DNA of 64,000 nt from Trichobilharzia szidati (taxonomy: Eukaryota > Platyhelminthes > Trematoda > Strigeidida > Schistosomatidae): positions 22,578,804 through 22,642,803 of the forward strand of contig OX235277.1 of NCBI GenBank assembly GCA_944472155.2, in the 5' to 3' direction. Each line of letters begins with the position of its first letter. Positions within the stretch are counted from its first letter, which is position 1. Under the pieces are notes generated by a model that saw nothing but the letters and a program-made list of their open reading frames with translations, was not told where the DNA came from and ran no database searches. Made by a program: the position numbers and the translations under genes. Positions 27,872-62,986 of the stretch are shown piece by piece.

Positions 27872-27898
27872 CTGCGGTTTATGAAGTTGTAGAAGCAC
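27872..27898 (-). CDS. candidate 27-base exon of gene A, with in-frame stop
   Basis: On the minus strand the acceptor cggttttcaaatcttcag is followed by 27 bases and then gtaagt; both signals are strong. In phase 1 it reads ASTTS or similar and then TAA, which would end gene A. In phases 0 and 2 it is fully open, so it could instead be an internal exon of another transcript. Confidence 0.5.
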
Positions 27899-28080
27899 CT
27901 GAAGATTTGAAAACCGCCTACTGTAATTAGTTGAAAATGAACGATGTTTCCAAATGATGCAACTACTTGTAGAGCAGCAGTTGCAAAGGGTTTTGTCCAT
28001 ACTATGTTGTCTTCAATAAGTATACAAGAGGGAAAAAAATGGATTATCAATTCATTGAAGATTCCTCCCAGTGACATCAT

Positions 28081-28290
28081 ACGCCAGGCTCACTGAGTGG
28101 AAGCCTATGAAAACTGACGACTTCAGGGTCTGAGAGTGAAATTCAGAATATCATGTGAAGAGAAGAAGAAAGCATGCAGGCGGCCCTGAGACGACCTGCA
28201 ATCGACTACAGAGAATCAGATGCCGCTAAAGACCTGTCTCGCACTGCGAAGACAAGAACTGAGTCATTATGCAGGTTATAATAATGATCT
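28081..28290 (+). mobile_element. very degenerate RTE-like 3-prime fragment
   Basis: Segments such as atcatacgccaggctcactg and gcaggcggccctgagacgac resemble the IxRQAxxxVEP...GRP stretch near the end of RTE proteins seen at 59.8 kb. The match is loose and the frame is broken throughout. Confidence 0.3.
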
Positions 28291-28690
28291 TTTCAGAAAG
28301 GCCTTTGTAAGTCTTCACACTGACATTCCATTCTGACACAGTTTCTTATAAGCGTCTGATAATTGTCAGTCAGTTAATCGTTACACTTAATATGGGGTTG
28401 AATCTTTTAATTTAAATTTAAACAATATAAGCTGGCCACCATACTGAATTATGTGTCAGCAGTTACCTAGTCATCACTGCAAATATCAACCTGTTAGCAA
28501 ATATCAAGTATCAGTCTTATCATGTCACGTTACTGTGACCATTCTTAATATAACTACTAATTTGCGATTGCCAAACGTGGGTCTCAGTTCACAAGATAAA
28601 GTTTGTTAGCTTGTGATAGCCTTCCACAAGGAATATAATGTGTAATTGTATAGTAAACATATAAAAACCACAATCAAATACTTTACTCAC

Positions 28691-28714
28691 TCTTTGGTTT
28701 AAGTTTCTGACTTA
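28691..28714 (-). CDS. candidate 24-base micro-exon of gene A
   Basis: The minus strand has an acceptor ending gtgctgtgacactttag, 24 bases, then gtgagt. In phase 1 it reads about SQKLKPK, a basic stretch. The pyrimidine tract is only moderate. Confidence 0.35.
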
Positions 28715-28719
28715 CTAAA

Positions 28720-29169
28720 GTGTCACAGCACATTGTTAATTTATGTGAAACGTAGAAAATGAGATTGCAATTAGAAATTTATTCTAACATTTATACAAAT
28801 GTGAAAGCCTCTACTGAGAACTCAGAAAGTCTTAGCTGGGTCCTAGCAGAAAATTGTCCAGAAGGTCATGAAAATTTGAAAGGACGTTAGCAAACATTCA
28901 AGCACACGAAGAACTAACAACAAATGGAAATACTGTCAGTCTCCTACATATCCCTCAGCGATAATGGCGTGTTATCTGCATGCAGCATGACTACATGAAC
29001 CGACCACTCCAAAATTGCTGCAACCGAAAAGTATCACGCAAAGTATACAAATGAGAAAATGTTATGCTTTCTGATAACTGACTTCAGTTTATGTAGCATT
29101 TTTAACCGTGGTTAATAATCAAAGTGATTTTATCCTTAATTTATTTCATGTAATATTCTGCGAATTTCA
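28720..29169. other. no gene seen
   Basis: Intron-like sequence next to the PLE pair. Confidence 0.3.
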
Positions 29170-29555
29170 AGAATATGATGGAGAAGGTTTGTAGCTCAGG
29201 TGGATGATTTTGATGTGGTTGTATTCTCTGAGCTAGCTGGATGGTTTATTTGAGAAGCTTTCATCACCCTACTGGGTGACATCTTCAGCGCATACTTCTA
29301 TTTGAATTGAAGTGAGCTTTTAGATTTCTCCACGAGTTTATTAGTTATCTCTCGTGGTGGCCTTGCACGTGATTAGTTGCTTTTGTGCGTTTTCATACCT
29401 TCTAGGCTACTTGTATTGGAAATGATTGTTTTCTTGACTTGAACTTTCACCTTTTGTGCGTGAGATTTCCTTCTTATCAGATGGTAAATTTTGCCTGTGT
29501 CGATGTGTCTATTGATTGATGATTCACTGAAATGCCAAGCTTCACTCCCACCTGA
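29170..29555 (-). mobile_element. Penelope-like element 3-prime end, inverted partner
   Basis: The minus strand encodes a decayed C-terminal tail (SEAWHFSESSINRHID, then QKVKVQVKKTIISNTSSLEG) clearly matching the plus-strand copy at 30.05-30.29 kb. It is followed by the same 3-prime hairpin and UTR. It lies tail-outward against that copy, forming an inverted pair. Confidence 0.75.
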
Positions 29556-30360
29556 AGGAAAATTCAAGAGAGATATCTCATGGAGGTCTTCCAAAAAATG
29601 GATATCCACGAAATTTCATCAAAAGACATATACCCCCAAGCCAACCTATCAAACCAAAAGCCCCCAAGGAAAGCACAAAGAAAGTTGCCCTGCCATATAT
29701 AAGGGATATATCAGAAATCACTGCAAGACTCGTCAAACCCTTAGGAATTGACGTTGCACACAAACCAACAAAATCACTTCACTCAGTTCTATGTCAACCA
29801 AAAGACTCAACAGCGAAAGAAGATAAAACCAACATCATCTACAAAAAAAATTGTAACAACTGCGAAAAACATTACATTGGTCAAAGTGGACGTCCCCTTC
29901 GTCTTCGTATCCACGAACATAAGCTAGCCGTCAAAAGACATGACATCCACTCCCTCATATCACTACATACAGGCAACCACGGGCATCAATTCGATTGGGA
30001 CAATGTTCAGATATTAGACAGAGGAAACAACAAAAATGCTAGAGAATTTTTAGAAGCTTGGCATTCCAGTGAATCATCAATCAATAGACACATCGAGATT
30101 GACAAAATTTATCAACCGATAAGAAAGAAACGTCACACACAAAGAGTCAAAGTTCAAGTCAAGAAAACAATCAGTTCCAATACAAGTAGCCTAGAGGGTG
30201 TGAAAACACGAAAAAACAACCAATCATGTCCAAGGTCACCGGGAGAGATAATAGATAAACTCGTGGAGAAATCTGAAAGCTCACTACAAAATTGAAGTAT
30301 GCGCTGAAGATGTTACCTAGTAGGGTGATGAAAGCTTCGCAAATTAACTATGCAGCTCAG
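29556..30360 (+). pseudogene. Penelope-like element, GIY-YIG endonuclease end
   Basis: A frame from about 29680 to a TGA at 30292 encodes a GIY-YIG-type domain. It shows IIYKKNCNNCEKHYIGQSGR, then LRLRIHEHK and an EFLEAWHSS helix followed by SSINRHI. The conserved tyrosines, the HYIGQ segment, the arginine and the terminal glutamate region are visible. The CxxC near the start is typical of PLE endonucleases. The reverse transcriptase part is missing, and the join to upstream sequence at about 29.57 kb is an inversion breakpoint with the minus-strand copy. The 3-prime UTR continues to about 30360 (gttacctagtagggtgatga). The copy is 5-prime truncated and cannot move by itself. Confidence 0.8.
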
Positions 30361-33300
30361 AGAACACAACCACTTCAAAAAAGTTCAAGAATAAACTGAG
30401 TGGTGAAGACGTTGTTGGATATATTAATTTATGATATCTTGAAATGTGAGACGCTGCAGAGCGAGGCGACTAATTTCAGTCGGCTAACTTAACACTGACT
30501 TACACTCTTGAACTAAAATGATAAAGTGTATCAATGAATCCGGTTGACAATGGTGAGTAAACTTCAAATAGAAAATCGCATGAATTATTTTACGGATTGT
30601 TGAAATATTCACTTCAAACTTCCTCCTGACAAAAACGTGGACGCCATGAATGATATTCACTTAGTGACCTAATTGTCCGAGGTAGATGTATCTGTATGTA
30701 ATGTATTTATGTATAATAAGGGTCTGTTGTTCTTACTGACTGAGAACAATCTCTCTTCTTATGTTCCTGCTTGTGCTTTGAAGCTCGGGGGTTGTTTGAG
30801 ATTCTGTGATGTTATTCCTCCTTCAGACGAGTTACTTATTGCCTTCCCTTAGCAAACCATGGTCCACGTGCTATTATTATTGGTGCCAGTTATATCATAT
30901 CAATAGTGTTGAAGTTATCGAACTCAAAAAAGTGTTTAGAAGGGAATATTCATTTCTGTTAAATGAGAGTAATTTTTCATACTTGTTCTCCCTGAGAAAT
31001 AAAAAAGTTCTGAAAATGTTTAGAGACAAATGAAGTTGTTGACATACTGTGAAAACGAGCTTCTAGACTGATGATATGAAATCTCTGACAGAAATGTGAA
31101 GAGGACAAAAGAAGTTCGTATTCAGTAAATGAATTTAATGATTAGTTGTGACTAAACATGCTAATCTAGTTAAGATTAGTGTAACTTGTACCGAGTGAGT
31201 TTAGAATTACATGACTTGACATCACACTGAAAAATAACCAATTTGCATGACAATTTATGAACAAAAGTTGGTGTCTTTATTTTCCTTTGTCGGTTAAGCT
31301 CCTTTGGTATGGAAATAAACTTTCTAATTTCTAAGGTTGTTTCAAGAAACAGAGAAGCAGAGATGTTTACTACGTATGAAGAAAATATTCACCTTGAAGA
31401 AACTGGTAATTTCCTCAGCGAGAATTGTCTCTCAGATTTGGAAATCAGCTTAAAATCGTCACTAAAATTTTTGTCTGATTTTTGCGTTCTGAGTGGAAAT
31501 CAGGTTTACCGCAGCGCATCTCACTTGTGGTCTGGTTTGTATCATCATTTCTGATTAGTTCTACAACGGCCTACAAGCTTTCACCCCTTCTTCACATGAT
31601 ATTCTCCATGTCCCACTCAGACATATGACATGTCCTTTTGTACTGAGGTTCCACTTGAATGTCTAGTGTGTTATGCTTCGCTCAATGATCTTCTTTGTCT
31701 TTGTCCAGTCCATCTTTGCTTTATTTTTGTAGACTGAATGACCAATAAGTTATCTGCTAGGTCACTTTTTTTGTCAGAGTTCTACAGTGTTTATCCTTTT
31801 CAGTCAGAAATCCGATCCAAAGCAACTGCAGTCTGTCGGAAAACCCTTTCAAAATGCGTGCACTGAATATCTAGAGCATACAGAAGTGATGACTTGACCA
31901 TAGTATTGGAAATTTGGATCTTGTTCTATGTGTTGAGTTCTGCAGGTTTCCTCACTGATTTCAGGGTATATCCATTAGATAATGAATTATATAATATATA
32001 GAAAACTTCAAAGCATATACATACTTATGAGTTCTAAATTAATACAAAACGACCAATTTGTTAAAATTAGAAAAAAAGGGAACATCAGGAAAAAATGAAA
32101 GAAAAGAAACTGAAGATGCGCCGCATCGTGAAGTTAAATGTGAACTTAAATATTAAACAGGTTGTCTCATACAGGATAAGTTTTAGGCTGTATGAAAATT
32201 AGCGGAAGCCTGTTGTCAATGTAAGTGAACATTGAACGTTGGTTCATTGGCCTTGGTCGCCATTGGCGGGCGACTGGAAGGGGCAAATGGTTCAGTCGTG
32301 TACAAGTTGGGAGAAGACGAAAGAATACGAATAAAAGTACAGCATATTTATTGTAAAACATTTGTTTACAGACTATGTACTAACCTCGATTTTAATTGCC
32401 AAATAATACAACTTCCTCCTTACAACCACTGGTGTTTTGGAGTTAAAGTCGAGTATCAGTCGTAGTAATTATAGGTTCGGAGCGTCTTCGTAACAATAGG
32501 AACTTAAGGTTAAGTTCCTTGACACCTGTTATTGACCGGTTTTCCAGCATTATTGCTGTGTCATTAACAGCCTTTTCCTGAGAAGTTTACCACTCACGGC
32601 ATCTAGGTTTTCTTGAGTGATGTCACGTTTTACCATTGTTATTCTTATAAAGGAATATTATGACCACTTTTCGCATACATCTCACATAGCAAGTCCACTT
32701 GGGCTTGTGACGAATTATAGCGGAAATAATTCACATTACTCGCTCCATTATATACATGCATCAATTACATAATACGGGGATAATTCAAAATATAAATACG
32801 CTCATGAATTTTCTGAATTAACGTAACGTAATGTTCAGGTTGATAAAATTAGGATGAAAATGAACTGAAAGAGAACGTCGGAGGGTAGCAAATTAAAAGC
32901 CGAAATGGAATGTCCAAACATTAACAGAGACCAGCAATTTATGTCCGTACTGCTGTCACAAGTAGATCAGCTGGAAGATTTTCAGGGTTTACCGGCCGAT
33001 TTGTTGAAAACTGTACCCGAACATTATAGGTTCTGAGAAGTCATGTGGCTAAACATATGAGTGATTTTTCTATTGAATAACTGTATCGTCTGATATATAT
33101 TTGTGATAATGCCGAATTAAACATTATAGAAGCAGTATTATCAAAGAATCTGTTAAGCGGGGAAACTTTGAGACGTACATTTAATGTTTAGTTTAAATAC
33201 AACATTGCAGTTTAATGCCGTACTGTGTGAAATCGTATGCGGTATCACTTAAGGCCTCTATTCGCTGGTGTCTTTGTGGAGAGAGCTGTCTGCAAGCCAA

Positions 33301-34020: not shown

Positions 34021-34029
34021 TTTGATTAG
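34021..34029 (-). CDS. candidate 9-base micro-exon of gene A
   Basis: The minus strand reads CTAATCAAA between a strong acceptor (atcgttttctgcattctag) and gtgagt. Phase 1 reads NQ plus flanking codons. The RTE element begins about 100 bases upstream and does not touch it. Confidence 0.5.
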
Positions 34030-34133
34030 CTAGAATGCAGAAAACGATTGAATGACAACACTCAAAGCGTCAGATTCAAATACAGTTATACTGTTTTCTT
34101 AAGGATCTTTTACCATACACAATTCCGCTTATA

Positions 34134-35312
34134 TAATAATAATTATTATTATTCTTATTATTATTGTTTCCTTTAATTCCTAGAGGAACATAGGGCTTAA
34201 GCCGTGCGTCTCCATTGCTTTCGGTTCTCTACTAGAGTCTTCACCTGGCCCCAAGTCTGACCACATGCTTTCATCTCCTCTTCACATGTCCTCCTCCAAG
34301 TCACCCTTGCACTGACGACAAACTCGCCGCTTCCCTTTTCGGCTTCTACTCGAGCAATGCCTTGTCTAGTGATGTCACTTGATGGTTTCCTCTGAGTATG
34401 GCCAATCCATCTCCATTTCTTCCTGCCTATTTGTTGTACAATCGGTTCCTGGTTGGTTCGCTCCCAGAGATCCCTGTTACTGATCTTTTCTGGCCGGCTA
34501 TCTGATCTTGAGTGTTGAGCGAAGACAAATGTTAATGAAGGTCTGTAGTTTGTTTGAGATGCTCTTTATGATGAGCAGTGCAAGTCTCTGATCCGTATAG
34601 TAGCACCGACTGGCTTCACATTGGAGTTGAAATTCCGGATAATATTTTTGATGCTGAGTGCTGTTGACCTCCACACAGACTTGAGAGTAGTGAAAGCTTG
34701 TCTTGCTTTTCCGATTCTTGCTTTGATATCCTCGTCAGTTCCGCTTGTAGTTGAAACGATGCTTCCCAGGTAAGTAAAGGAGGTTGCTTCTTTCAGGTTC
34801 CTCCCATTTATGCTGATCGTTGTCTGTTGTTGTTGTTCTTGTCGAGGAGTCTTCATTACCTCTGTTTTCTCTATGTTCACCTGAAGTCCTATGTTTGATG
34901 CTTCTTCTGCCAACTCGTTGCTTTTCACTTGCATATCTTCCAGTTTTTGGGAAATCAGACATATATCATCGGCGAAGTCCAGATCCTCCAAGTTTTTTGT
35001 GTGAGTCGATTTTATGCCTGTTTCCTCATTGCCCGCTGTTTGTCGCATTATCCAGTCTACTGCGATCAGGAAAATCATTGGCGATAGTAGGCAGCCAGCT
35101 TGTCTTACTCCTGTCCTCACTTCTTTGAAGGATTCCGTTAGTTTCCCGTTGTGGATTACTTGGCATGCAGCATTGTCGTACAGCTGTTGGATGAGATGTA
35201 TAATTGTCGGTAGCACCCCGTAGTAGCGAAGTAGTTTCCAAATCACCTCTCGATCGACGCTGTCAAAGGCTTTCTCAAAGTCGGTGAAGTTGAGATAGAG
35301 AGATCGGTCGGC
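34134..35312 (-). pseudogene. RTE-clade LINE, reverse transcriptase half, truncated
   Basis: From 35312 leftward the minus strand encodes the middle and end of an RTE reverse transcriptase. It shows FTDFEKAFDSVDREVIW (motif A aspartate), a GVRQAGCLLSP segment (one extra residue compared with the usual GVRQGC) and DLDFADDICLIS, the catalytic motif with both aspartates. The TYLGS and KARQAF segments follow. Near 34618 an extra two bases break NVKSVLLYGSET, and the last part continues in another frame (WRWIGHT, then ARVEAEKGKRR). The 3-prime end is ggaattaaaggaaacaataa with ATT-rich tail. The 5-prime half with the endonuclease is missing. It is a dead copy lying wholly between candidate exons 34021 and 35479 of gene A. 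Confidence 0.9.
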
Positions 35313-35478
35313 CGCTTATATAAATATTTCACTTAGTAGTAGTAGTAGGATTCAGTCAGTACATGTGTATATACATATTTCTGTTGTACAGTCGGAGTTT
35401 CATGCTGTTTTACAGATCCACAAGGGTAAACTTCAGTGAATAACGTGATCAAGAAGTGAAAAACAAATATTCACATAC

Positions 35479-35484
35479 CCTCAG
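35479..35484 (-). CDS. candidate 6-base micro-exon of gene A
   Basis: The minus strand reads CTGAGG after a strong T-rich acceptor (tttattaaaatttatctag) and before gtatgt. Phase 1 compatible. Confidence 0.45.
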
Positions 35485-36104
35485 CTAGATAAATTTTAAT
35501 AAAATAATAGAAAAAATACATATTTAGTAACATCTGGAAAATATGAAATTGTTTCACTCTGAAAAGAGCCCATTATTTCCAGTTACAAGGAAATTAGCCT
35601 CAGATTTAGACATAAACACATTAGGAAGTAAACAAAACTTATCTAGAATTTATGATCTTCTTTATCTGCACCTCACACAAATCTGAATTCTTAGCACCAT
35701 GTAGCGAAGAAACCACTGTACTGATTTTGGTATAGAAATAACACAATTATATCGGAAGTGCTAACTCACGATTGATGGATAGACCATACGCTACATCATT
35801 GGAAAACATTCATAGCACAAGTGAATGATTTGATGTAATCAGATGAAATATGTGACAACATTTAACAATTTTATTGACCCACAACAGATCACCTTACTTA
35901 GTTAGTGATAATTTCAGATATATTCAAGATGATGTATATCGGAGTGAAGCAAGTGAGCAAGTTTCATTTGAAAACAGTTGGTTTCATTTATGGGTTATTT
36001 ATTTAGTAAAACTAAGAAATGTTGGTTATCTACGATTTTCCCGGGAACAATCAGAACTGAAGTTTGCTTTTCTCTAGTTTTACTTTATTATTCTTTTATT
36101 TTTG
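35485..36104. other. no gene seen; intron-like
   Basis: No recognised repeat or gene. Confidence 0.35.
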
Positions 36105-36910: not shown

Positions 36911-38229
36911 GTATGTGAGACACAGCTAATAAACAATATGTCATCAGAAGTATCCTGAATAGGCATTCTGGTTGAATGAAACTCACAACTTACTTTTCGT
37001 CTCTGATATGATGAGTGATGTAAGTAAAAAAAAAACAGGCAAATTTGCGATCATACTTTGTGATCCCGAATCACATAAATTGTTAGAGGAAATAAAATGA
37101 TACTAGACACCACTTTCTTTTATCGAAATCATTTGACAGTGAGTTTGGAATTCCTCACCAAATTGACTTTGTAAGTCGATAGTATTTCTAGATGGAGAGG
37201 TGTTTTGCTACTGTGGGTTTGGAATTATTGAGATCATTACTATGCTTAGCCATTTTCGGGAATCAATATTCTCCTTGAAATGACTTTTATTAACTACCTT
37301 GATTGAACAACTGCTCTATAGTTGTTTTGTTCACAATTCTATTAAGACCTCCTTGATTGCTCTCACCTTTTTGATATTTTCAATTTCAGTTGTTTAAATT
37401 TGCGAGCAAACATGGCTACATGTGATATCTGATGGCAGCGCACTCACTCCAGGTCCAGGTATTCAAAGAGCTTGAAACCATGAAAGTATTGAATTCAAAA
37501 TTAACAGCTGCTTCATGGTGACACTGCTTAATGCGTCATCTAAGGGGTTCTCTGATCGTTCTTTTGATAATTGTGGCCACAGTGTTGGAAACGCGGCAGA
37601 AATATATATCTCCATGTCTGCACGATCTCCTGTAATCATCATAGATGTCGTTCGGTTTCAAAAAATGACTATGAATTGGATGTATTTTTTGTATTACTCG
37701 GTTGGTTGAGTTGTTATCAAAAGTAATACAACTGAATGTCATCTCAATGTTATGCGAAAGTAAAATTCACCTTCGTTTGCACTGAGTACTCTTAGATGCA
37801 AACGCGGCTGACGTTTATGCAGGATGTAATCAGTATAAGAGAACTTTGGTTTCTTAGCAAAACTTCACTTTTGCAGCACACTTTGGAAATTTCAATTTTA
37901 AAAGTTTTTTTTGGAATTCTTTCAATAAACCATATGATAAGTCCTTAATCTTTTCGTAGTCTGTCATGTATTTTGATTTGATAACGTTCCATAATTCAGA
38001 CTTACCAAATTCCCCTGAATAGATGTAAAATTTACTGATCAATGAGATTATTGTCTAATATGAGCTGTCTGGTAGTTTTTCACTGACATTCAATTGTGAT
38101 GAGAACCAGAATGACAAAACGAAATTTTCAGTGCTGACTCCAATGTTTTCAAACAGTATGAATTCGGTATTTTGCTAATGTCATAGAGTGTTTTAGGACA
38201 AAGAGATTTCACCAAAACCATCAACTCAC

Positions 38230-38235
38230 ATGAAA
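38230..38235 (-). CDS. candidate 6-base micro-exon of gene A
   Basis: The minus strand reads TTTCAT between a strong acceptor (gaatatctctgttttgatag) and gtgagt. Phase 1 compatible with the exons at 40260 and 35479. Confidence 0.5.
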
Positions 38236-40259: not shown

Positions 40260-40268
40260 GTTGTTTCA
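40260..40268 (-). CDS. candidate 9-base micro-exon of gene A
   Basis: The minus strand reads TGAAACAAC after a strong acceptor (cttattaacctggttatttcag) and before gtgagt. In phase 1 the TGA is split and not read as a stop; it reads KQ plus flanking codons. Confidence 0.5.
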
Positions 40269-41431: not shown

Positions 41432-41440
41432 TTATTTGTG
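41432..41440 (-). CDS. candidate 9-base micro-exon of gene A
   Basis: The minus strand reads CACAAATAA after a very strong acceptor (ttaatctttttacattttag) and before gtaagg. Phase 0 would end in TAA, while phase 1, the phase of the other exons, is open. Confidence 0.45.
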   Translation of the reverse strand, partial: HK

Positions 41441-42092: not shown

Positions 42093-42101
42093 CCAAGATT
42101 T
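42093..42101 (-). CDS. candidate 9-base micro-exon of gene A
   Basis: The minus strand reads AAATCTTGG between a strong acceptor (gtgctttccatcacttcag) and gtaagt. Open in phase 1. This is one of the clearest single micro-exons. Confidence 0.55.
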
Positions 42102-43465: not shown

Positions 43466-43474
43466 CTTTCTCTT
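43466..43474 (-). CDS. candidate 9-base micro-exon of gene A
   Basis: The minus strand reads AAGAGAAAG between a strong acceptor (aattctgttaatttaatcag) and gtatgt. Phase 1 reads EK plus flanking codons. It lies only 85 bases from the next candidate at 43560. Confidence 0.55.
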
Positions 43475-44331: not shown

Positions 44332-44340
44332 CTTTAGTAA
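44332..44340 (-). CDS. candidate 9-base micro-exon of gene A
   Basis: The minus strand reads TTACTAAAG between an acceptor ending caactccctaatccttaag and gtgagt. It sits right at the edge of an old RTE copy, so its acceptor tract may derive from element sequence. Open in phase 1. Confidence 0.4.
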
Positions 44341-48039: not shown

Positions 48040-50304
48040 TTTAAATTTTGCGATTGAAGTAAAATATTATCAGGAAGTGAGTGTGTTTGTAGGAGTTCCC
48101 TTATGCCTGTCATTGCTATAGATACTAATCATAATAGAATATAGACAGATGCAGTGAATAACTTTTAAATATGTCGCTGATTTCAAACTCCTACTCTTCA
48201 TTTTCCATTTTATGCTGAATTTCATTGCATCAACTCGTATGCATATCGATCTATATGAATGTGGCCTATGTGTCCCTTCAAATGATATGATATGGTTGCT
48301 ATCGAGTACTCTTACCGACTGATTACCTCTCAAGTTTTGCATAGATACCAGTAGCCACTTTGAAGTGCTTTGATGTAATGACGAATACACAGAAGTCATT
48401 TACGAACTTCATGGAACGTCTCATGGAACTTATCGTTTGAAGAAGAAGAAGAAGAGTGTGAGCATAAATTGATCACTTTATTGGAAAAACAAAACATATA
48501 TAAAGGGAGAACTCTTCACATTAAAATAATACCAGTAATTTCCTATGCCACCGGGGCGTCAAGCAGATGGAATTCGGTTGATAAGCAGATGGTTATAATA
48601 AGCGAATGCAGCTGACAACACAGTTTTCTGCTAAGCTCTTATACGTAATTTAGCAAAACTAAAAACATAAAGAATCCAGAAGAAATTTTTCTTTGTTAAA
48701 TCTCACGCGCAATATGATTCATGTTTCAGCTTACTTAAAGAAACTGCAAATAGTGAAATATAGAGGGAATTTATATAGCAAAGCATTGTATCATACCATA
48801 TATATGTTGAATGCGTTGACTATCCTTCATTGCACTGTAGCTTCTTGGATTAATGCTTTGACATTCATCCGTTTTTCGTTTTGATACTTCTGTTTGATGG
48901 ACGCCATCTTCAGTATGCCGTGGTGTCGTTAGCTGATTCTTCTTGACGGTATATTATAAGTGTGAAAAGTTGAATAAAGTGGAAAAGTGTATGCGAAAAT
49001 CTTGACGAATCTCGATTGAGCCTTCATCATACTACTTGAAATGCCCGAAAACCGTGTCATAAGATACTGTTTTCATGAATACACAAGCCATTCAGACAAA
49101 AAACACCACACTCATTTAACTACGTGTGAACTGATCTTCAGACGATAGTGGTTTGTCTCAGATTAGAGTTTGAAGAGTGAAAATATGAATTAGTTACCAA
49201 CTGTCTACTATTTAGGACACTCACATAAACACACTGGAATGTATTGCTTATTCAAGTGACATTGTTTAAATTAAATTATTAGTATTCAACTTCGTAAAAA
49301 TTCATTTTGGTGAGGTAATCACCTATTAAATGAATGCAAAAACCGTCTAATATAAAAAACATGCTTTGAAATGAAACTGGCGCGCGGTGCAACAAACAAA
49401 TCCTTTTCTAAGTAACCCGTGAGAGAGAGTGAGGCGGGGCAATAAGGGAAGTAAAGGAGGAATACAAGAATTAACAAACTGTAACAGTCAGTGGAGACGG
49501 AATGATACCAGATGGTTTTAACTTCATCATTTAGAAGGTTAAAGGAAATATCTTTCTGGAAATATATCTGATGTGGGAAGACCAGGAAGCTTGATCAGAG
49601 GAAATACACTGTTCAAGGTATTTAACATTCGATTAAGTTTCAACTGCTGCAGCATCTGTGGTAGTTAAACTGTGCCAACTAACCAATCCACGCGTGTTGC
49701 GCTGGCGTCTGAAAGGGAAATTAACCATCTGACTGGTATTTGGAGTGATTAAGCTTAAGACGGCTTGACAAGGACCGCTGACTGATTTCTGATGAAAAAT
49801 GATTCACTTGAGAACAGTCTGACTGAGAAGCGACAGATGTAGAAACGGTCAAATCATAGACATGCTTAATAAAATTCTCTCCATCAGGATGAAATCAAGT
49901 CATGTAAGAAGAAGGAAAACAGAAAAAAAGAGAAGGAACGACTCCTTGAGAAGCATCAGCTAGAGTAAGTGAAGCAGTGGGGGACAGTGTACTGCTTCTC
50001 ATCAGAAAAGTGTGAATGTAACCGTTTATTAGTTCAACATCTGCCTTGTATCATGGTAAGCTTGTTAGGCAGAAAAGGATTGGATACATATTGGATGGAC
50101 GATGTGTAGTCATGGAAGGCACACTGAACATATTTGGCGTCTCTGACTAAACTACAGAGAATATTATGGTGTGAGACCTCATTGGCATCTAGAATAAAAC
50201 ACCTTTTGTGGGTTCATCAAAAGCCCTGAATGTAGGTTCAAGACTAAGTAAAGAGAGTTTTTCCATTGTTTCTGAAAATGATGATGTAATAGACAGTTTT
50301 ACTT
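48040..50304. other. no gene seen; intron-like
   Basis: No recognised gene. A 9-base minus-strand block at 49225-49233 (TGTGTTTAT before gtgagt) would create a stop when joined to the 47994 exon and is not included in gene A. Sequence around 49.5-50.2 kb may be old element DNA without a motif I can name. Confidence 0.35.
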
Positions 50305-50894: not shown

Positions 50895-51014
50895 TGTTTC
50901 CCACCGGTGATTCTGATTTAGCACCGGTTCTCGTCCGATCGCCGAAGTTAAGCAACGTTGGGCCCGGTTAGTACTTGCATGGGTAACCGGTTGGGAATAC
51001 GGGGTGTTGCCGGC
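50895..51014 (+). pseudogene. 5S rRNA-like sequence
   Basis: Clear 5S rRNA segments are present in order: tctcgtccgatcgccgaagt, taagcaacgttgggcc, ggttagtacttgcatgggt, and ttgggaatacggggtgttg ending gccggc. The first 35 bases diverge from a normal 5S. The pol III internal control region is largely kept. It runs within six bases into a SINE head and lacks a good T-run, so it is better read as a 5S-derived module than as a working gene. Confidence 0.75.
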
Positions 51015-51020
51015 CTTTAG

Positions 51021-51235
51021 TGCGTTGGTGGCACAGCGGTTAGGATGCTCGCTGACAGTGCACATGGTCCGGGGTTCGGTCCCCGATCGACGCACTCCTT
51101 TGCGTCACTGAACCAGAAAGGTTAGGCATGAGGTTAGTAACCCCATCCTGTGAAAATAATCACCACTGCTACAGAAACTTCAAGCCTCCAGCTTGAAGCC
51201 CTATGTTCCACTGGGAACGTGAAGGAATAATAATA
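51021..51235 (+). mobile_element. tRNA-derived SINE, body type A, fused to 5S-like module
   Basis: The head tgcgttggtggcacagcggt begins directly after the 5S-like sequence. The B box is ggttcggtcccc, and the type A body ends cttgaagccctatgttccac. No duplication flanks the SINE alone. A loose pair, agaatggatta before the 5S and agaatagtgatta after the SINE, suggests they inserted as one unit. Confidence 0.75.
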
Positions 51236-51239
51236 ATTT

Positions 51240-53231: not shown

Positions 53232-53237
53232 TTGTCG
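53232..53237 (-). CDS. candidate 6-base micro-exon of gene A (duplicated unit 2)
   Basis: The minus strand reads CGACAA after a strong acceptor (catttttatttgtcactttaaag) and before gtgagtac. It is the counterpart of the exon at 47994. Phase 1 compatible. Confidence 0.5.
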
Positions 53238-54639: not shown

Positions 54640-56480
54640 TCAATCTGGTCGACTCATCATCCACTCTTGGGTTTCACTAGGCTTATCAGGGAAACAGGTG
54701 GTAAAAGGCAAATGATAAGCGAAACAATCTCTGAAAAAAAATGGCACCATAATTAGCTCCCAGGATAGACGTCTGGAGCGCTGGAAAGAACACTATGAGG
54801 AGCAGTTTAATTGGCCCACAGCCACACTTAACCTGCCGGACATCCAACACCTCCTTGAATGGGAGATAGACACAGGTCCTCCGTCCTTAACTGAGGTTAC
54901 TAAAGCTGTCACCAATCTGAAGCAAGGCAAAGCAGCGGGACCTGATTTATTAACTCCAGAGGTATTTAAGTACGGTGGAGACAGTTTACTGTCTGCGTTA
55001 ACGGAGGTTCTAGGCAGCGTCTGGGAATCAGAGGAAGTCCCATCGAGTTGGTGTAAGTCACTGATCATCCCGATATACAAGAAGGGAGACAAGTCTTCTT
55101 GTGATAATCACAGAGGGATTAGCTTGACTAATATAGTATCTAAAATCCTAGGCTCAATAATACTGCGTAGACTAAGTGGTGCTCGAGAGACACAAACACG
55201 AGAAAACCAGGCAGGTTTTAGGCCAGGTAGAGGGTGTATTGATCATATCTTCACCCTTCGACAGATTCTAGAACATAGGCATTCCTACCGGCGTCCGACA
55301 ATCGTTATATTTCTTGACCTAAAGGCGGCATTCGATTCTGTCGACCGGGAGGTTCTCTGGCAATGCTTGGCTGTAAAGGGAATGCCGAGAAAATACATTG
55401 CACTAATTAAGGCACTCTACTCGTACTCATGCAGCCAGGTGAGGGCTTATGGCGAGTTGTCATCTGAAGTGGTGACGACTAGTGGCGTCCGTCAAGGATG
55501 CCCATTATCCTCATTCCTATTCAACTTCATCATAGACGTACTAATGGACTTAACCCTAAAACACTTCAGCGACTCAGGGATTGACTTGCTACCAGAGAAT
55601 AATCTCGTTGACTTAGAATATGCAGAAGATATAGTCCTTCTAGGCGAGGACTCTGACGAAATGCAGAGTCTACTGAACACCTTGAGCAACAATCTTCGTA
55701 TGTTTGGCATGCGATTCGCCCCTGTAAAATGTAAGATGATGCTGCAGGATTGGACTTCACCAACCCCTAGATTAGAAATAGGAAGTGAAGTGGTGGAACA
55801 CGTTGACCGCTTCAATTACTTGGGAAGTACCATCAGCCCCAACGGGTTGATCTCAGACGAAATTTCAGCACGAATACAGAGGGCTAGGTTCGCATACACC
55901 AGTTTTCGCCGTCTCTGGCGTAGACGCGATATCCGACTATCGACCAAAGGGCGTGTGTACTGCTCAACAGTCCGCTCCGTCCTCCTTTATGGCTGTGAGA
56001 CATGGCAATTGAGAGCAGAAGACATGAAAAGATTAGCTGTGTTCGATCATAGGTGTCTGCGTTCTATCTCCCGCGTGAAGAGGTATAATAAGGTGAGCAA
56101 TATTGAGGTTAGGCGTCGAGTGCTAGGTAAGACGGGGAAATCAATCGACGAAACGGTGAAATTACTTCGACTGAGATGGTTAGGACATGTGCTACGTATG
56201 CCTAGTCATCGCCTTCCTCGACGGGCAATGTTAACTGATATAGGGCCAGGCTGGAAAAGAGCTAACGGCGGTCAAACGAAAACATGGCACCAGTCAATGA
56301 AATCCACAACTGTTAGTTTAAGCCACGTTGGAAGGTGTAGACTTCCTGGTTGGAGTCCTCGGGGTGGTAAAAACCAATAGTTGGAAACAATTGGTGACAT
56401 GGCTCAAAATCGCTCTCAGTGGCGCAGATGCATCCACTCCTTGTGACTTATGATTTCCAATTAAACTGTTTTGTTCTCCG
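54640..56480 (+). pseudogene. RTE-clade LINE, near-complete reverse transcriptase
   Basis: A second, different RTE family. A pre-RT linker is readable from about 54650 (RLIRETGGKRQ), is shifted by one extra A in the run 54734-54741, and continues as EHYEEQFNWP and KQGKAAGPDLLTPEVF. The frame is then open to 56380. It contains IPIYKKGDKSSCDNHRGISL, FRPGRGCIDHI, FLDLKAAFDSVDREVLW (motif A), GVRQGCPLS (motif B) and LEYAEDIVLL (motif C). Motif C has Glu in place of the first catalytic Asp of YADD. The thumb-side segments FNYLGSTIS and VLLYGCETW follow, then RLRWLGHVLRM. Near 56340 another shift separates the usual WRRCIHSL end. No N-terminal endonuclease is visible. Inactive, but the best preserved element in the window. 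Confidence 0.9.
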
Positions 56481-57710: not shown

Positions 57711-57719
57711 TTTTACATA
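57711..57719 (-). CDS. candidate 9-base micro-exon of gene A
   Basis: The minus strand reads TATGTAAAA between an acceptor ending gaaacttatgcgaatccag and gtaagt. In phase 1 it adds CK plus flanking codons. The acceptor is moderate. Confidence 0.35.
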
Positions 57720-57899
57720 CTGGATTCGCATAAGTTTCAAAATGAATTCATGCACATCAGATTATTATGGCTGAATATTTCAGATTTGTGTATAGGTATA
57801 TTAGAACAAGACGAATATAAGCGAACAATATTGTCGTCTTCAAGTAGATCTTCTTCAGGCTTTACTCTAATTTACATAGACTTATATTTAAAGACATTT

Positions 57900-58260: not shown

Positions 58261-58269
58261 TAATTCCCA

Positions 58270-58920
58270 TAGCTTCAGCTATGTGTAAAAGATGGATTCA
58301 AATTCCGTTCGAAAGGCTCGATGGAATGCGATAGATAACTTTGAAGGCACTATTTTTGTCCACTTGGTGACCGCTATCAATCATATGAGCCAAAATAGAA
58401 CTTCTTATAGATTTTATGTGACCTTTTCCGAACCATGAAGGAAGATGCTCATTAATGCGTTTGTTAAGCTGTCTCGTTGTTCGCCCCATATAATTTTCTC
58501 CACAGGAACAGCTAAATTTATAGATACACATCGAAGTCGGTGGTAAAGCGGTTAGGACGCTCGCCGACCATGCACATGATGCAGGGTTCAATCCCCGACT
58601 GACGCACTCCTTTACCTCGCTGAGCCAGAAATAATGCCGGTAAAGAGGAAAGGTTGGGCATAAGGCTAGCAACCCCATCCTGTAAAATAAACACTGCTAC
58701 AGAAACTTCAAGCCACTAGCTTGAAGCCCTATGTTCCACTGGGGAACGTGAAGGAAAAAAAACAAAAAAACATCGAATTGGCACAGCTAGTTAGCTTGTC
58801 TTTCACTTGAGCAATCAAAATTGGTCGGCTGTATATCTTATCTAACCGATAATGAAATACCAAGATATTCCAAAGATTTACTCATACAAAATCACAAGGG
58901 AAAACCAATTAGGATTTTAT
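58270..58920 (-). pseudogene. Penelope-like element GIY-YIG region, split by a SINE
   Basis: The minus strand reads RPILIAQVKDKLTSCANSM before the SINE. After it come CIYKFSCSCGENYMGRTTRQ, then LNKRINEHLPSW and SSILAHMIDSGHQV. Together these form the start and core of a PLE GIY-YIG endonuclease, with CxC cysteines, a YMG in place of YIG, the conserved Arg and the EHLPxW histidine segment. The reverse transcriptase part is absent or unreadable upstream. The SINE insertion at 58536-58769 interrupts it with a target duplication. Confidence 0.8.
58528..58777 (+). mobile_element. tRNA-derived SINE, body type A, nested in PLE
   Basis: The head is agtcggtggtaaagcggtta and the B box ggttcaatcccc. 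The type A body ends cttgaagccctatgttccac. The duplication acatcgaa at 58528-58535 and 58770-58777 brackets it, so the SINE is younger than the PLE. Confidence 0.85.
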
Positions 58921-59552
58921 AATTACGTCTGAATAATGGTGCAGAAACACTATTCCGTGTGGTTAAGAAGAAGTAGTGTAAGTGGGGCTTTCAGAGGCTC
59001 AACAATTGATCATCTGTTCGATAGTTGTCACATGATTTCTACAATCCCCTCACAAACAAAGCAAGGAATATGTTGCCTAGACCACTGCATACTCAACTCT
59101 TCTGTGATGCCGAAGCTTTGGTCATCGAAATAGAGAGAGGCCAAATGTTTGTATATGGAAGCAGCAGCTTTTCAACCACTCCTTCTTTCATATTTCTTAC
59201 CTATCATTTGACGATAAAGTATGCTAATAATCCCTGCTGACACTTTGGTCCCACATATTCTTCTTCACTTTCTTCACTCAATATTTTGTATCACATTCGC
59301 TTATTGTGTCAGCTGTTATCAATAATTTCACTTTGAACAGTTTCTTATATCATATTTCGTAGTCACCTTTATTTATTTTGATTCAATATATTTAATTTAT
59401 GCAATGTCTTATCATCACTACCACCTTGTTGCGTTATGTTTTAATCACTCAAATTGCCTTATTACTCCTATACGCCTATGAGATTTATGCATTTCATGAA
59501 GTGTATTGCAAAGCACATTGAATTATTTTTGTCATAATTCACACTACTAATA

Positions 59553-59557
<5 letters not shown>

Positions 59558-59583
<26 letters not shown>
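59558..59583. repeat. TA dinucleotide repeat
   Basis: About 26 bases of ta repeat directly before the truncated LINE at 59585. Confidence 0.9.
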
Positions 59584-59584
<1 letters not shown>

Positions 59585-59586
<2 letters not shown>

Positions 59587-60050
59587 TTGAGAGCAGATTT
59601 TTCTTCTATACGGATCAGAAACTTGGTGGGTCACAAAGAATATTTCCAACAGCCTGTTGCAGACCTTTATCAACAACTGTCTTCGTTCTATACTGAAGAT
59701 CAGATGGCCGGAAAGAATCACCAACAAGAAACTATGGGAACAAACAAAGCAAGAATCAATCGCTCAACAAATATACAGGAGAAAGTGAAGATGGATTGAA
59801 CACTCGCTGAGGAGGTCGTTGGGTGGCATCGCGCGTCAGGCCATAGCTCGAGTGGAACCCGAAAGGAAGCGGCGAGTGGGACGTCCGAGGGTGACATGGA
59901 GGAGATCGTGTGAAGAGGAGTTGAAACAGTATGGACTAACATGGATGCAAGTGAAAAGTACAGCAGAAGACAGAAGCAGCAAGTGGAGACGTGCATTTGA
60001 AGCCCTATGTTCCACTAGGGACCCAAGAGAACAAAAATAATAACAATAAT
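59585..60050 (+). pseudogene. RTE-clade LINE, 3-prime end, one stop
   Basis: One frame runs from FLLYGSETWWVTKN to the end of the protein, with ILKIRWPERITN, then WIEHSLRRSLGG, ARVEPERKRRVGRPRVTWRR and EALCSTRDPREQK at the stop (60040). A single TGA at 59786-59788 replaces the Trp of RRKWRW. No other damage is seen, so this is a fairly young 5-prime-truncated copy. It ends gaagccctatgttccact, then an aataataacaataataa tail. Confidence 0.85.
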
Positions 60051-60987
60051 AAGATTCTTCAATGAATCACTGGTTTCCCTATTCTACTCATTGTGTTATA
60101 TTGCTAAGTAGAGAAACTTAAGTGAATTTCGCCAACTAAAGCTGTTTTACATCTACTCCTGTGTTACTTATCATCAAACAATTTCACTTACGATATAAGG
60201 AATCATCATGAAATAAACTGACACTAGCCAATTAGCAGATCTGGGGTTCTAATGACATCTATTGTACTAATTAAAACATTAGACACCTTGATGGCTCTGA
60301 TCAGATTTACTGATGATCATCACAAAGTTTCCCGTCTACGTACAGAAAGTGGTCTCAAGACAATTGCTTATCATATGGTGACACAAACCCCAGAAATATT
60401 CATCTCTGATGTTGAGAAAATGAGAAAACCAGCCTGCCACATGTCATCTGCACGAAAAAGAAGGCAAATAGACATGATAAGATGATGTATTCGCATAGTG
60501 GCATTTGACACGGTATCCCTATTGATATGAAGAGAGAAGATACATGTCAATTGAAATTGCATCATAGCAAAAAACTTCACTGGTGCTTGTTTGAGGATAC
60601 AGTGAGCAACTGGATGAACTACAGTTAACATGAAGGGAAATGAGAGGAAACAAACAGAAGTAACATGGAATAAAGGAAGAATTAAGGAAGTTTTGACAAT
60701 CAGATGATAAAAATTTCGAACTGAAGAAAGCGGTCCCATATATTCCTTTTGTCCGCTTATGTTATGTTATGGAATGCCGAGACTTCAGCTATGCAAATCA
60801 AATGCAACAGTGAACTTGGTATTTTAATCGTTATACTGAAGAAATACAATCTCTGACAGGAAGTGATGGTCGTGGTGAATCTGTTTGTTCGCTTTCAGAG
60901 AATAGAATCTGGAAAAACTAGAACAAATATTTTGAAAAGAAATAAAGGTGAACTTATATTTCTAGATATTTTAAGTACTGGACTCAC
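60051..60987. other. no gene seen; intron-like
   Basis: No recognised feature. A 26-base block before gtaagt at about 60.2 kb on the minus strand is not a multiple of 3. Confidence 0.35.
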
Positions 60988-61014
60988 TCCTTTCCTCTTC
61001 ATCAATCAAATCAC
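60988..61014 (-). CDS. candidate 27-base micro-exon of gene A
   Basis: The minus strand has an acceptor ending actactcaaaaaatacttcag, 27 bases, then gtgagt. Phase 0 and phase 2 contain TGA, while phase 1 is open and reads about DLIDEEER, strongly acidic. That only phase 1 works, and it is the phase left by exon 1, supports it. Confidence 0.5.
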
Positions 61015-61644
61015 CTGAAGTATTTTTTGAGTAGTTTTGTGATTTTACTAGGTGAATTGAAACAGTTGATAGTATTTAAACGTTGCACTTCTACAGCGCG
61101 AATAGAATCAATCTTCTGATTGATTCGATCGAAAATATCCCTGATTTCTATGAATAGTAGTTATTATGAGATTAGTTTTTTCAGCAGCAATTACAGCGCA
61201 ATGTCTATCATCCCTCCGCCTCATCCACCTCGTTTCATTCGTTTAAGACGAAGAGGTGTAAATAAGGTTTTGACAATTTTACTCTACGTTTGATAAATAC
61301 TAATGGAGGAAGGAGCTAATTTACTGTTCCTACATACAACACCAGATAGAACAGAATAGAACATACAAGGCAAAACTAATGCTAAATCTGTCGACATATT
61401 TTTTCTTTAGTTTTGAGAAAGTAAAGTAGCAGGTTCGCTTTATCCATACTAGTTGCTACCATTCAGTTTGTCACAATTTTTATCTGAAATGAAATAGTTA
61501 ATTGTTCATATTCATCACATAGGGTGCCGCTCATAGCTTGAAAAGTCGTTGAAAACTAATAGTGTTGACCGAAAACTTATGGTTAACCTCAGTAACAGCA
61601 TTTATTCGACTAAAACAAGATACAAAACACTTTAAAAGACTCAC

Positions 61645-61653
61645 GAGGTATAA
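61645..61653 (-). CDS. candidate 9-base micro-exon of gene A (exon 2)
   Basis: The minus strand reads TTATACCTC between a strong acceptor (atactctttcgtacactgtag) and gtgagt. Joined to exon 1 in phase 1 it adds IIP. Confidence 0.55.
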
Positions 61654-61734
61654 CTACAGTGTACGAAAGAGTATGAAATTATATAGGTGAGAAAAGTTAG
61701 CGATTAAAACGTTAAACCTCATCTGAAATGTATG

Positions 61735-62795
61735 TTGGGGTATGTAGTTGACACATTCACTGTACTTAGAACACAGGACATAAATAGAATTTTCGAAGAC
61801 ATCAACTCGAAGGTAGACAATCCAGTTCACTTATGAATTCGAAAGTCAGGAAGGAGAGCTCCCAGTGTTGGATTGTAGCGTAAAACAGGAAGAAGATGGG
61901 AAGTTAAACACTAGTGTTTATAGGAAACCCACACATTCCAGCAGATATTTGGACTTCCGATCGTCCCATCGTATGTCAGTGAAAATAGGATTGGTGAAAT
62001 GTTTAAGTAATAGAGCACAACAGCTAAGTAGTACCAAAGAAAATCTAAGACAGGAAGTGAGGCATATAAGGGAAGCTTTTAAATTCAACAATTACCCTGA
62101 TAAATTATTCAGGAAGTATGTAGGGAAATGTAAAAATAAAATAAATAATAATATTGATATTAATAATATTATTGATGTCAAACATGCCTAAGATAATAAC
62201 AACACCAACAATAAGGAATCTAAAACATCAGTAGTAATTCCATACAAGGAAGGAACCTCCGAAACCTTACGCAGAATTCTTAACAAGGCAGGAATCAAAG
62301 TGGGTGGCATTCAAACCAACCACAAACTCAATTAGAAACAAGCTTTGTCGGTTAAATGATCCTGCCAGTGGAGCTAATTAAACAAAACAATTTAGTTTAT
62401 CTAACCCCCGCCTGCAATCATTGTCAGGTCAAGTATATAGGTCCAACTAGTTGAACAGGGGCAGTCAGACTAGCTGAACGTAAAAACCTTGCAAAATCTA
62501 GATTAGTCGACCCGAATAAGATAAGAAATCTAGAGAATAGTTCAGCTATAGCACCCACTAGATACAATCACACACAACCATACAATAGGATGGGATAGGA
62601 TGACAGTTATAAAATCTAATGTCACAGGGTATAGGGAGAGATTGATATCAGAAGCTTTGTTTATCGAATCAACTGCAAATACGTGTAATAGGAATGACTC
62701 AACATCTGTCCCAGATATCTGGAAAATTTTACTGCCAATTCAAGAAATATGGAAGCATAAAGAAAACTATAAAATTGAAGTTTAGGAAGTCGTGT
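61735..62795 (+). pseudogene. Penelope-like element, RT motif to C-terminus, degenerate
   Basis: It begins at YVVDTFTVL (61741), matching PLE motif C YVDDTF with the first catalytic Asp changed to Val. A one-base loss near 61820 shifts into a frame reading LPVLDC, then VYRKPTHSSRYLDFRSSH, RQEVRHIREAFKFNNYPDKL. After a stop comes a degraded endonuclease part (YLTPACNHCQVKYIG). A last open piece reads LISEALFIESTANTC and ends at 62785. This belongs to a different PLE branch from the 29.5 kb copy, judging by its divergent end. It lies between exons 1 and 2 of gene A. Confidence 0.8.
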
Positions 62796-62925
62796 GATTA
62801 TAACTGTTGCAATGATTATGAACAATAAATTTTGTTCAAAACTTTGTCATCCAGTAAATAATACTGTTTCACTGACTGTGTGATACATCTAATAAACAAA
62901 CTAATATGGAAGCATCAAAACTTAC

Positions 62926-62986
62926 TTGGTGAATTTTCAGTGTCAATGGCTAAGGTGAGCAAGACAAACAGAAGGCTTAGTAGCAT
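62926..62986 (-). CDS. gene A exon 1: signal peptide, MEG-like
   Basis: On the minus strand ATG at 62986 opens 20 codons starting MLLSLLFVLLTLAID and ending TENSP, plus one A, followed by gtaagt. The leucine-rich core of about 12 residues and the polar segment after it fit a cleavable signal peptide. The exon is 61 bases and leaves phase 1. A clean TATA box (63043-63051) lies about 60 bases upstream, leaving a short 5-prime UTR. The next exon with the right phase is at 61645. The layout (signal-peptide exon, then many tiny phase-1 exons) is that of schistosome micro-exon genes, which produce secreted proteins at the host interface. I cannot name the family, as I recognise the architecture and not the sequence. 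Confidence 0.7.

What the first reader, a model, noticed from the sequence alone, without database searches (positions are those of the whole stretch)
27872..62986. A large minus-strand gene made of a signal-peptide exon and about 19 tiny exons
After the signal-peptide exon at 62986 I find 6-27 base blocks on the minus strand, each between a pyrimidine-rich AG and a good donor. Joined in order in phase 1 they stay open until a TAA at 27.88 kb, giving about 91 residues from 35 kb. Schistosome micro-exon genes are known to look like this. Standard gene finders miss such exons, so this gene may be unannotated.
Basis: partly seen in the sequence, partly recalled or inferred. Interest (0 to 1): 0.9.

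Follow-up and report, generated by a model that had tools for sequence, protein, structure and literature searches.

The report
Gene built from nine-base exons
A likely blood-fluke chromosome carries a 35,000-base gene made of one signal-peptide-like exon and about twenty exons of 6 to 27 bases, most of exactly nine, and relatives elsewhere in the same genome keep the splice sites and reading frame, so the pieces are predicted to be spliced into one short secreted protein that gene finders would likely miss.

Summary
The finding holds up. On the minus strand of 62.93-27.86 kb, 13 blocks of exactly 9 bases sit between acceptor-like and donor-like sites; 795 other spacings average 0.83 and reach 4; the plus strand has 1. 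The same 1.11-Gb genome holds 16 further exon-1 matches. Five of those loci, read for 40 kb each, carry the same micro-exons. I model exon 1, 20 internal exons of 6-27 bases (14 are 9 bases; all symmetric, phase 1) and a last exon with the stop near 27.88 kb. Between window and relatives, micro-exon bases differ at 38-40%, introns at 17-18%, splice positions at 4-6%; dN exceeds dS. Among the five relatives there is little such excess. The window copy has an in-phase stop and lacks the next acceptor, both intact in the five relatives, so it is shortened or decaying. By architecture it is a micro-exon gene, in a genome that looks schistosome-like but not like S. mansoni. Splicing is inferred; no RNA was available.

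The parts
63043..63051 (-). TATAAATAG box upstream of exon 1 (predicted promoter)
   Evidence: read; in the relatives TATAAATAG lies 57-59 bases before the exon start in 15 of 16 (absent in L025)
62926..62986 (-). Exon 1, 61 nt, signal-peptide-like (MLLSLLFVLLTLAIDTENSP + 1 base), donor GTAAGT, phase 1
   Evidence: 17 copies in the genome counting this one; donor kept in 16 of 17
61645..61653 (-). Exon 2, 9 nt
   Evidence: conserved 5 of 5
60988..61014 (-). Exon 3, 27 nt
   Evidence: length and splice sites conserved 5 of 5
57711..57719 (-). Exon 4, 9 nt
   Evidence: conserved 4 of 4 mapped; P13 unmapped there, but the block is listed for it
53232..53237 (-). Exon 5, 6 nt
   Evidence: conserved 5 of 5
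49225..49233 (-). Exon 6, 9 nt
   Evidence: conserved 5 of 5
48735..48743 (-). Exon 7, 9 nt
   Evidence: conserved 5 of 5
44332..44340 (-). Exon 8, 9 nt
   Evidence: conserved 5 of 5
43466..43474 (-). Exon 9, 9 nt
   Evidence: conserved 5 of 5
42093..42101 (-). Exon 10, 9 nt
   Evidence: conserved 5 of 5; its 301-bp surroundings have 10 places in the genome, itself included
41432..41440 (-). Exon 11, 9 nt
   Evidence: conserved 5 of 5
40260..40268 (-). Exon 12, 9 nt (weaker acceptor in relatives)
   Evidence: AG, GT and length kept 5 of 5, but below the mean-score threshold
38230..38235 (-). Exon 13, 6 nt
   Evidence: conserved 5 of 5, mean score 10.3
38006..38014 (-). Exon 14, 9 nt
   Evidence: conserved 5 of 5
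36994..37002 (-). Exon 15, 9 nt here; the relatives appear to have 6 nt
   Evidence: acceptor kept in 4 of 4 mapped, donor 3 bases nearer (read by eye; P10 unmapped)
35770..35790 (-). Exon 16, 21 nt here through an acceptor 12 bases upstream; 9 nt in relatives
   Evidence: donor kept 5 of 5, acceptor moved
35479..35484 (-). Exon 17, 6 nt
   Evidence: conserved 5 of 5
34021..34029 (-). Exon 18, 9 nt
   Evidence: conserved 5 of 5
30983..30991 (-). Exon 19, 9 nt
   Evidence: conserved 5 of 5
30504..30512 (-). Exon 20, 9 nt
   Evidence: conserved 5 of 5
28691..28714 (-). Exon 21, 24 nt
   Evidence: conserved 5 of 5; exon letters strongly changed between near-identical flanks
27872..27898 (-). Exon 22, 27 nt; in-phase stop at 27881-27879 in this copy; 18 or 27 nt and open in the relatives
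27746..27780 (-). Coding part of the family's terminal exon; acceptor dinucleotide absent in this copy, present in 5 of 5 relatives
   Evidence: read by eye

Best explanation
This is a micro-exon gene: a signal-peptide-like exon and 20 internal exons of 6-27 bases, 14 of them exactly nine, all in phase 1, that are predicted to be spliced into one secreted protein of about 98 residues. Shown: the blocks, their statistics, the conserved splice sites and frame in five colinear relatives, and the high divergence of the micro-exons. Inferred: transcription from the TATA promoter, joining of the exons across introns of 0.2-4.5 kb, and secretion. Because every internal exon in the model is symmetric and in the same phase, almost any exon could be dropped, lengthened by three bases or rewritten without breaking the frame, so the gene would work as a string of exchangeable two- to nine-residue pieces; duplication, exon change and possibly exon skipping would give a set of variable secreted peptides. 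By analogy with schistosome micro-exon genes these likely face the host. The window copy would end early, at a stop in exon 22, and has lost the acceptor of the family's last exon, so it is either a shortened variant or at the start of decay.
For: Nine-base spacing 13 against a mean of 0.83 and a maximum of 4 at 795 other spacings, plus strand 1; 12 against 0 on the plus strand with a scoring-free rule. The five relatives read have 9-12 nine-base blocks on the sense strand and 0-2 on the antisense strand; other spacings reach at most 4-6 on the sense strand. AG, GT and length are kept for 17 of the 20 internal exons in every relative mapped; two change length in steps of three and exon 12 is kept but scores low. 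Exon 1 plus 18 conserved exons join into a stop-free phase-1 frame in 6 of 6 copies. Exon-1 family of 17 with a kept donor in 16 and a TATA box at near-fixed distance in 15 of the 16 relatives. Micro-exons differ at 37.6-40.3%, 30-base flanks at 15.6-17.1%, introns at 17.4-18.2%, splice positions at 4.1-6.1%; dN 0.56-0.64, dS 0.34-0.39.
Against: No transcript, protein or annotation was available, so splicing, secretion and exon skipping are untested, and no signal-peptide predictor was run. I chose symmetric blocks for the model: of the 33 conserved candidates of at most 36 bases, 23 are multiples of three and 10 are not. The divergence excess is seen only between the window copy and the others: among the 10 pairs of relatives, micro-exons differ at 1.6-10.0% and introns at 3.8-6.3%, with 2 of 10 at p<0.05. 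dS is also above the intron rate, on only about 35 sites. Stops made by exon skipping are not significantly avoided (2 of 171 junctions in the window). The core peptide is not unusually amphipathic. Two protein searches found no homologue. The window copy carries two defects at its 3' end.
Confidence: 0.9

Rival explanations
1. The window copy is a pseudogene of a working micro-exon gene family: it once was spliced as described, but loss of the 3' end has silenced it or will.
For: In-phase stop in exon 22 and missing acceptor of the terminal exon, both intact in 5 of 5 relatives; a 9-nt block present in all five relatives finds no significant match in the window.
Against: The other splice sites of the model and the frame are kept, and the micro-exon bases differ more than intron bases, which decay alone does not give. 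The stop costs only the C-terminal end.
Confidence: 0.3
2. The exons are real, but their high divergence reflects homogenised or constrained introns rather than positive selection on the peptide.
For: Flanks near exons can be held by splicing signals, unalignable intron is left out of the intron rate, and pairs of recent relatives show little excess.
Against: The alignable intron, 18.5-22.7 kb per relative, gives the same 17-18% as the flanks, and random windows put through the same exon-minus-flank test against P14 average -0.002 (sd of mean 0.035), the exons +0.258.
Confidence: 0.2
3. The blocks are chance matches picked by eye in AT-rich sequence.
For: Two of the nine-base blocks do look like chance (40830 not conserved; 32033 without a counterpart), and single blocks of other lengths score as high or higher on the plus strand.
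Against: Excess at exactly nine bases on one strand only and conservation of the same blocks in five relatives.
Confidence: 0.01
4. The blocks are conserved non-coding elements that only resemble exons.
For: No RNA evidence is available here.
Against: The conserved parts are the splice sites, not the blocks: block letters vary most, while block lengths stay multiples of three and phase 1 stays open in 6 of 6 copies.
Confidence: 0.03

Closest known systems
Schistosome micro-exon genes as a class (MEGs; PMC4671649 one section and passages, PMC10526429 parts 1-3 of 5, PMC8293314 passages)
   Same: Signal peptide in the 5' exon, central exons mostly under 36 bases and symmetric, introns of 0.1-5 kb, small secreted product, family expansion with transposable elements around.
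   Different: S. mansoni exons are described as mostly 15 bases; in my model 14 of 20 internal exons are exactly 9. All 20 are symmetric, partly by my choice of blocks, against 26 of 33 for MEG-26 to MEG-32. The genome is 1.11 Gb and unnamed.
MEG-8.2 of S. mansoni (PMC12998952, passages)
   Same: 17 exons of which 15 are micro-exons, about 20-residue signal peptide, frame-preserving exon skipping seen in 1 of 10 cDNA clones.
   Different: Its micro-exons are 12-33 bases. No MEG-8 sequence was at hand to compare.
[quoted passage not shown])
   Same: Mature part with dN/dS above 1 and a more conserved signal peptide.
   Different: Reported values are 1.10-1.14 between species; here paralogue dN/dS in the micro-exons comes to about 1.4-1.8 from the values, with introns as a second yardstick.

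Membership tests
Micro-exon gene (architectural class) | 5' exon carries most or all of the signal peptide | tested here: met
   Exon 1 encodes MLLSLLFVLLTLAIDTENSP, a hydrophobic N-terminus; read by eye, no signal-peptide program was run
Micro-exon gene (architectural class) | Central coding part mostly of exons below 36 bases, symmetric | tested here: met
   The 20 internal exons of the model are 6-27 bases and multiples of three. I picked symmetric blocks; without picking, 23 of 33 conserved candidates of at most 36 bases are symmetric and 12 are nine bases long
Micro-exon gene (architectural class) | Long introns, 0.1-5 kb | tested here: met
   21 introns of about 0.2-4.5 kb, computed by hand from the exon coordinates
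Micro-exon gene (architectural class) | Long 3' flanking exon | tested here: inconclusive
   A terminal exon with stop is read in 5 of 5 relatives; its acceptor is absent in the window copy; its 3' end is unknown
Micro-exon gene (architectural class) | Spliced transcript, often with exon skipping | not testable with these tools
   No RNA reads available
Micro-exon gene (architectural class) | Occurs in a schistosome | tested here: inconclusive
   A GST exon of this genome (L048) matches 28-kDa class GSTs at 97-100.5 bits (46 of 69 identical in the best, by eye; the chains are Schistosoma from recall) and the next, a sigma-class GST that is Fasciola by recall, at 66.3 bits. Two other GST-like exons gave no such pointer.
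Numbered S. mansoni MEG families | Motif FL-phi-phi-F-x6-W-p-(K/H/R) after the signal peptide, given for all S. mansoni MEGs in PMC10526429 | tested here: not met
   Read by eye in the six joined products; absent, so no numbered family is claimed
Numbered S. mansoni MEG families | Sequence homology to a known family member | tested here: inconclusive
   Two searches of 5.8 billion proteins gave no homologue, but whether that set holds schistosome proteins is unknown, and both queries were incomplete models

The most novel reading that the evidence does not exclude
A secreted-protein gene family built as an array of exchangeable nine-base cassettes, each adding three residues in one fixed phase, in which splice sites are frozen while the cassette letters were rewritten at more than twice the intron rate when the window gene split from its relatives: an exon-by-exon device for diversifying a host-facing peptide, outside the genus Schistosoma.
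Probability: 0.45. Interest if true: 0.78.

Novelty: new member of a known kind. Interest (0 to 1): 0.62.

Why it matters
Gene finders tend not to see coding exons of six or nine bases, so whole secreted families of this sort may be missing from blood-fluke annotations; here one was supported from genome sequence alone by a spacing statistic plus paralogue alignment, a method that could be run on any fluke genome. A long run of exons near the lower size limit asks how a spliceosome finds them. Exons that differ more than their introns, between splice sites that hardly change, make selection on the encoded peptide directly testable.

Tried and rejected
Blocks rejected as exons: 40830-40822 (stop in phase 1; donor not usable in 5 of 5); 32033-32025 (no counterpart in 5 of 5); 38577-38561 (17 bases, kept in 5 of 5 but not a multiple of three and with a stop in phase 1). 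Kept in 5 of 5 but low-scoring and not adopted: 52709-52698 (12 bases), 38905-38891 (15), 48318-48316 (3). Of the 67 candidates I adopted 18; most of the rest are longer blocks that share a boundary with an adopted exon, and they were not tested one by one.

Ideas that failed: tandem duplication as the source of equal lengths (flanks of the 9-base blocks are not alike beyond short matches and one 75-base stretch at 72%); an unusual amphipathic helix (best 18-residue moment p 0.63, whole core p 0.06); selection against stops made by exon skipping (window 2 of 171 junctions, relatives 0 of 171 each, order-shuffle p 0.17-0.41); protein homologues. A text search for pieces of the signal sequence found no paper. 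A first, stricter scan gave 10 blocks on the minus and 6 on the plus strand at score 8 over the whole window, with 3 and 0 of nine bases; it was replaced by the relaxed scoring, and the scoring-free rule was run later as a check. Homology to the relatives ends at 27016; P14 has two weak further pieces at 14.5-13.4 kb, which I take as unrelated, so nothing is claimed below 27016. DeMarco et al. 2010, the founding paper, is not held and is cited only through reviews. Passages of PMC13155389 and PMC12582326 did not settle the organism.
Full report
What was checked. The window lies at C7:22578804-22642803 of an unnamed assembly of 1,113,721,179 bases in 907 contigs. Exon 1 is at 62986-62926 on the minus strand: a TATA box, then an ATG that opens MLLSLLFVLLTLAIDTENSP and runs into GTAAGT after 61 bases, leaving phase 1.

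Is the array more than chance? I scored AG-block-GT combinations on both strands. At a combined score of 4 or more, the minus strand of 62.93-27.86 kb has 13 blocks of 9 bases, 1 of 8 and none of 7 or 10; the plus strand has 1 of 9 bases; 100 random sequences with the same dinucleotide statistics average 0.57 and reach 3. The strongest control keeps the real acceptors and donors and looks at other spacings: 13 at +9, against a mean of 0.83 and a maximum of 4 at 795 spacings from -400 to +400; 11 of the 13 lie between 44.4 and 30.4 kb. A rule without weights gives 12 against a mean of 1.26 and a maximum of 4 at other lengths, 0 on the plus strand, and a maximum of 5 at nine bases (7 at any length) in 500 random sequences. 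The flanks of the blocks are not copies of each other. A stricter first scan was less clear and is superseded. Phase 1 is open in 14 of 15 blocks, phases 0 and 2 in 11 and 12; since 380 of 429 AG-9-GT blocks anywhere are open in phase 1, this alone says little.

Relatives. A search of the own genome with exon 1 and its promoter found 16 further places, 8 at 85-88% identity and 8 at 69-80%. The 17 oriented loci give a signal-peptide-like exon each; the donor is kept in 16 (lost in L025) and TATAAATAG lies 57-59 bases before the exon start in 15 of the 16 relatives (absent in L025; for the window locus the script picked an earlier copy of the motif). By the end of exon 1 they fall into three groups: TENSP (9, with the window), ADNLS and kin (4), TGNIS (4). 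A search with the surroundings of exon 10 found 10 places: the window, eight that lie downstream of the eight close exon-1 relatives, and one, C3:131690376, without an exon-1 match of its own. So the micro-exon array itself is shown in six copies, not in seventeen.

The five relatives carry the same array. Blocks of 9 bases on the sense strand number 10, 11, 9, 12 and 10, on the antisense strand 1, 1, 0, 2 and 2. They are colinear with the window from 63108 to 27016 (P10, P12 and P14 printed, P13 in part, P11 through the map). Asking for blocks of 3-120 bases whose AG and GT are kept in every mapped relative returned 67 candidates, 33 of them multiples of three, with 12 at 9 bases; at up to 36 bases, 23 of 33 are multiples of three. 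The model takes 17 internal exons and exon 22 from these, plus 40268, 37002 and 35790. The 17 keep splice sites and length in every relative mapped; exon 12 (40268) keeps AG, GT and length but scores low in the relatives; exon 15 is 9 bases here and appears to be 6 in the four relatives mapped; exon 16 is 21 bases here and 9 in the relatives. Length changes thus come in threes. P11 and P13 have additional micro-exon-like blocks in an extra stretch, and P11 has one 6-base exon twice.

The reading frame. Exon 1 and the 18 exons of equal length join into 82 codons, stop-free in phase 1 in 6 of 6 copies. The window product begins MLLSLLFVLLTLAIDTENSPIIPRDLIDEEERICK. With exons 15, 16 and 22 the window model has 98 residues; this was counted from coordinates and its frame read by eye, not run as one join.

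The 3' end. In the five relatives exon 22 is open and a further exon follows about 90 bases on, with a kept acceptor and a stop after about a dozen codons. The window copy has an in-phase stop in exon 22 (27881-27879) and lacks the acceptor dinucleotide of the last exon (read by eye). Intact copies exist.

Rates. Over 18 exons (exon 1, 15, 16 and 22 left out; exon 4 of P13 unmapped), window against each relative P10-P14, micro-exon sites differ at 70/186, 71/186, 71/186, 71/176 and 74/186; 30-base flanks at 15.6-17.1%; all aligned intron at 17.4-18.2%; splice positions at 4.1-6.1%; exon 1 at 8.2-9.8%; Fisher p against introns 8e-11 to 2e-12. Random windows in the same exon-minus-flank test against P14 average -0.002 with sd of mean 0.035; the exons average +0.258 (17 of 18 usable). 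In micro-exons dN is 0.56-0.64 and dS 0.34-0.39; the intron distance is 0.20. Against this, the ten pairs among P10-P14 show 1.6-10.0% in micro-exons and 3.8-6.3% in introns, with only 2 of 10 at p<0.05. The burst of change therefore belongs to the split between the window gene and the others, and the five comparisons are not independent. Sites with alignment gaps were not counted, and unalignable intron is left out.

What it is and how it would work. The architecture is that of a micro-exon gene. By the papers read, such products are secreted, several from the oesophageal glands, and vary between copies. A cell making this protein would have to define exons of 6-9 bases, far below the usual size. 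Symmetric phase-1 exons let single exons be skipped or changed without a frameshift. How much skipping happens is open: for MEG-8.2 only 1 of 10 clones skipped an exon (PMC12998952, passage). I tested two further ideas and neither held: an unusual amphipathic helix and avoidance of stops at skip junctions.

Which organism. A GST exon of this genome (L048) matches 28-kDa GSTs best (100.5 bits), the next kind of structure at 66.3 bits; the chain organisms are from recall (Schistosoma, then Fasciola). Two other GST-like exons did not bear on the question. At 46 of 69 identical residues and 1.11 Gb it is unlikely to be S. mansoni. Sub-threshold hits to hammerhead type I and mir-3492 fit a schistosomatid, from recall. 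A bird or mammal schistosomatid outside Schistosoma is my guess, not a result.

Comparison with print. PMC4671649 (one section and passages) gives long flanking exons, micro-exons under 36 bases and 26 of 33 symmetric; PMC10526429 (parts 1-3 of 5) gives a majority of 15-base exons; PMC8293314 (passages) mentions a 9-base exon in MEG-3.1; PMC4350168 (outline and one section) gives dN/dS up to 1.14; PMC5825161 (outline, one section and passages) reports MEG-4, MEG-8 and MEG-9 in Trichobilharzia regenti. Searches for nine-base exons in micro-exon genes (1 paper, 20 of 46 listed) and for micro-exon genes outside Schistosoma (25 of 109 listed) showed no such array in titles and abstracts; beyond the passages named I did not read those papers, and only open-licence papers are held. 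I file it under the class by architecture and under no numbered family.

Noticed in passing
50903-51236 (+) and 36448-36101 (-): Two copies of a roughly 230-bp repeat whose head reads tRNA-like by eye are directly preceded by another small-RNA sequence: a 5S rRNA (63.4 bits, above the Rfam cut-off) ending 1 base before, and a U1-like sequence (47.5 bits, below the cut-off) ending 4 bases before. Looks like composite SINE heads. Five further copies in the window have no Rfam match beside them.
   Followed up: partly
46265-46233 (-) and 27336-27377 (+): Sub-threshold hammerhead type I matches (25.5 and 24.4 bits, cut-off 34) inside a repeat shared between the two places; a mir-3492-like match (41.5 bits, cut-off 44) at 55885-55808 (-) inside a reverse-transcriptase ORF.
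   Followed up: no
38577-38561 (-): A 17-base block with strong splice sites kept in 5 of 5 relatives, not a multiple of three and with a stop in phase 1: chance, or an exon that would end the protein early if included.
   Followed up: partly
L030-L031 (relative P11, about 5.7 and 11.8 kb): The 6-base exon with its flank occurs twice, a micro-exon duplication inside one gene.
   Followed up: no
G000:C3:131690376-131690655: A tenth copy of the exon-10 region without an exon-1 match of its own: a partial copy or one with a diverged exon 1.
   Followed up: no
62911-62800 (-): The start of intron 1 is a high-copy repeat: 39 further places at 90-98% identity and one short piece, with only 40 of 1771 candidates scored.
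   Followed up: no
2908-3407: A run of 500 N, an assembly gap.
   Followed up: no
54719-56380 (+) and 34566-35315 (-): Reverse-transcriptase ORFs (RVT_1) inside introns of the gene, in stretches that do not align to the relatives.
   Followed up: partly
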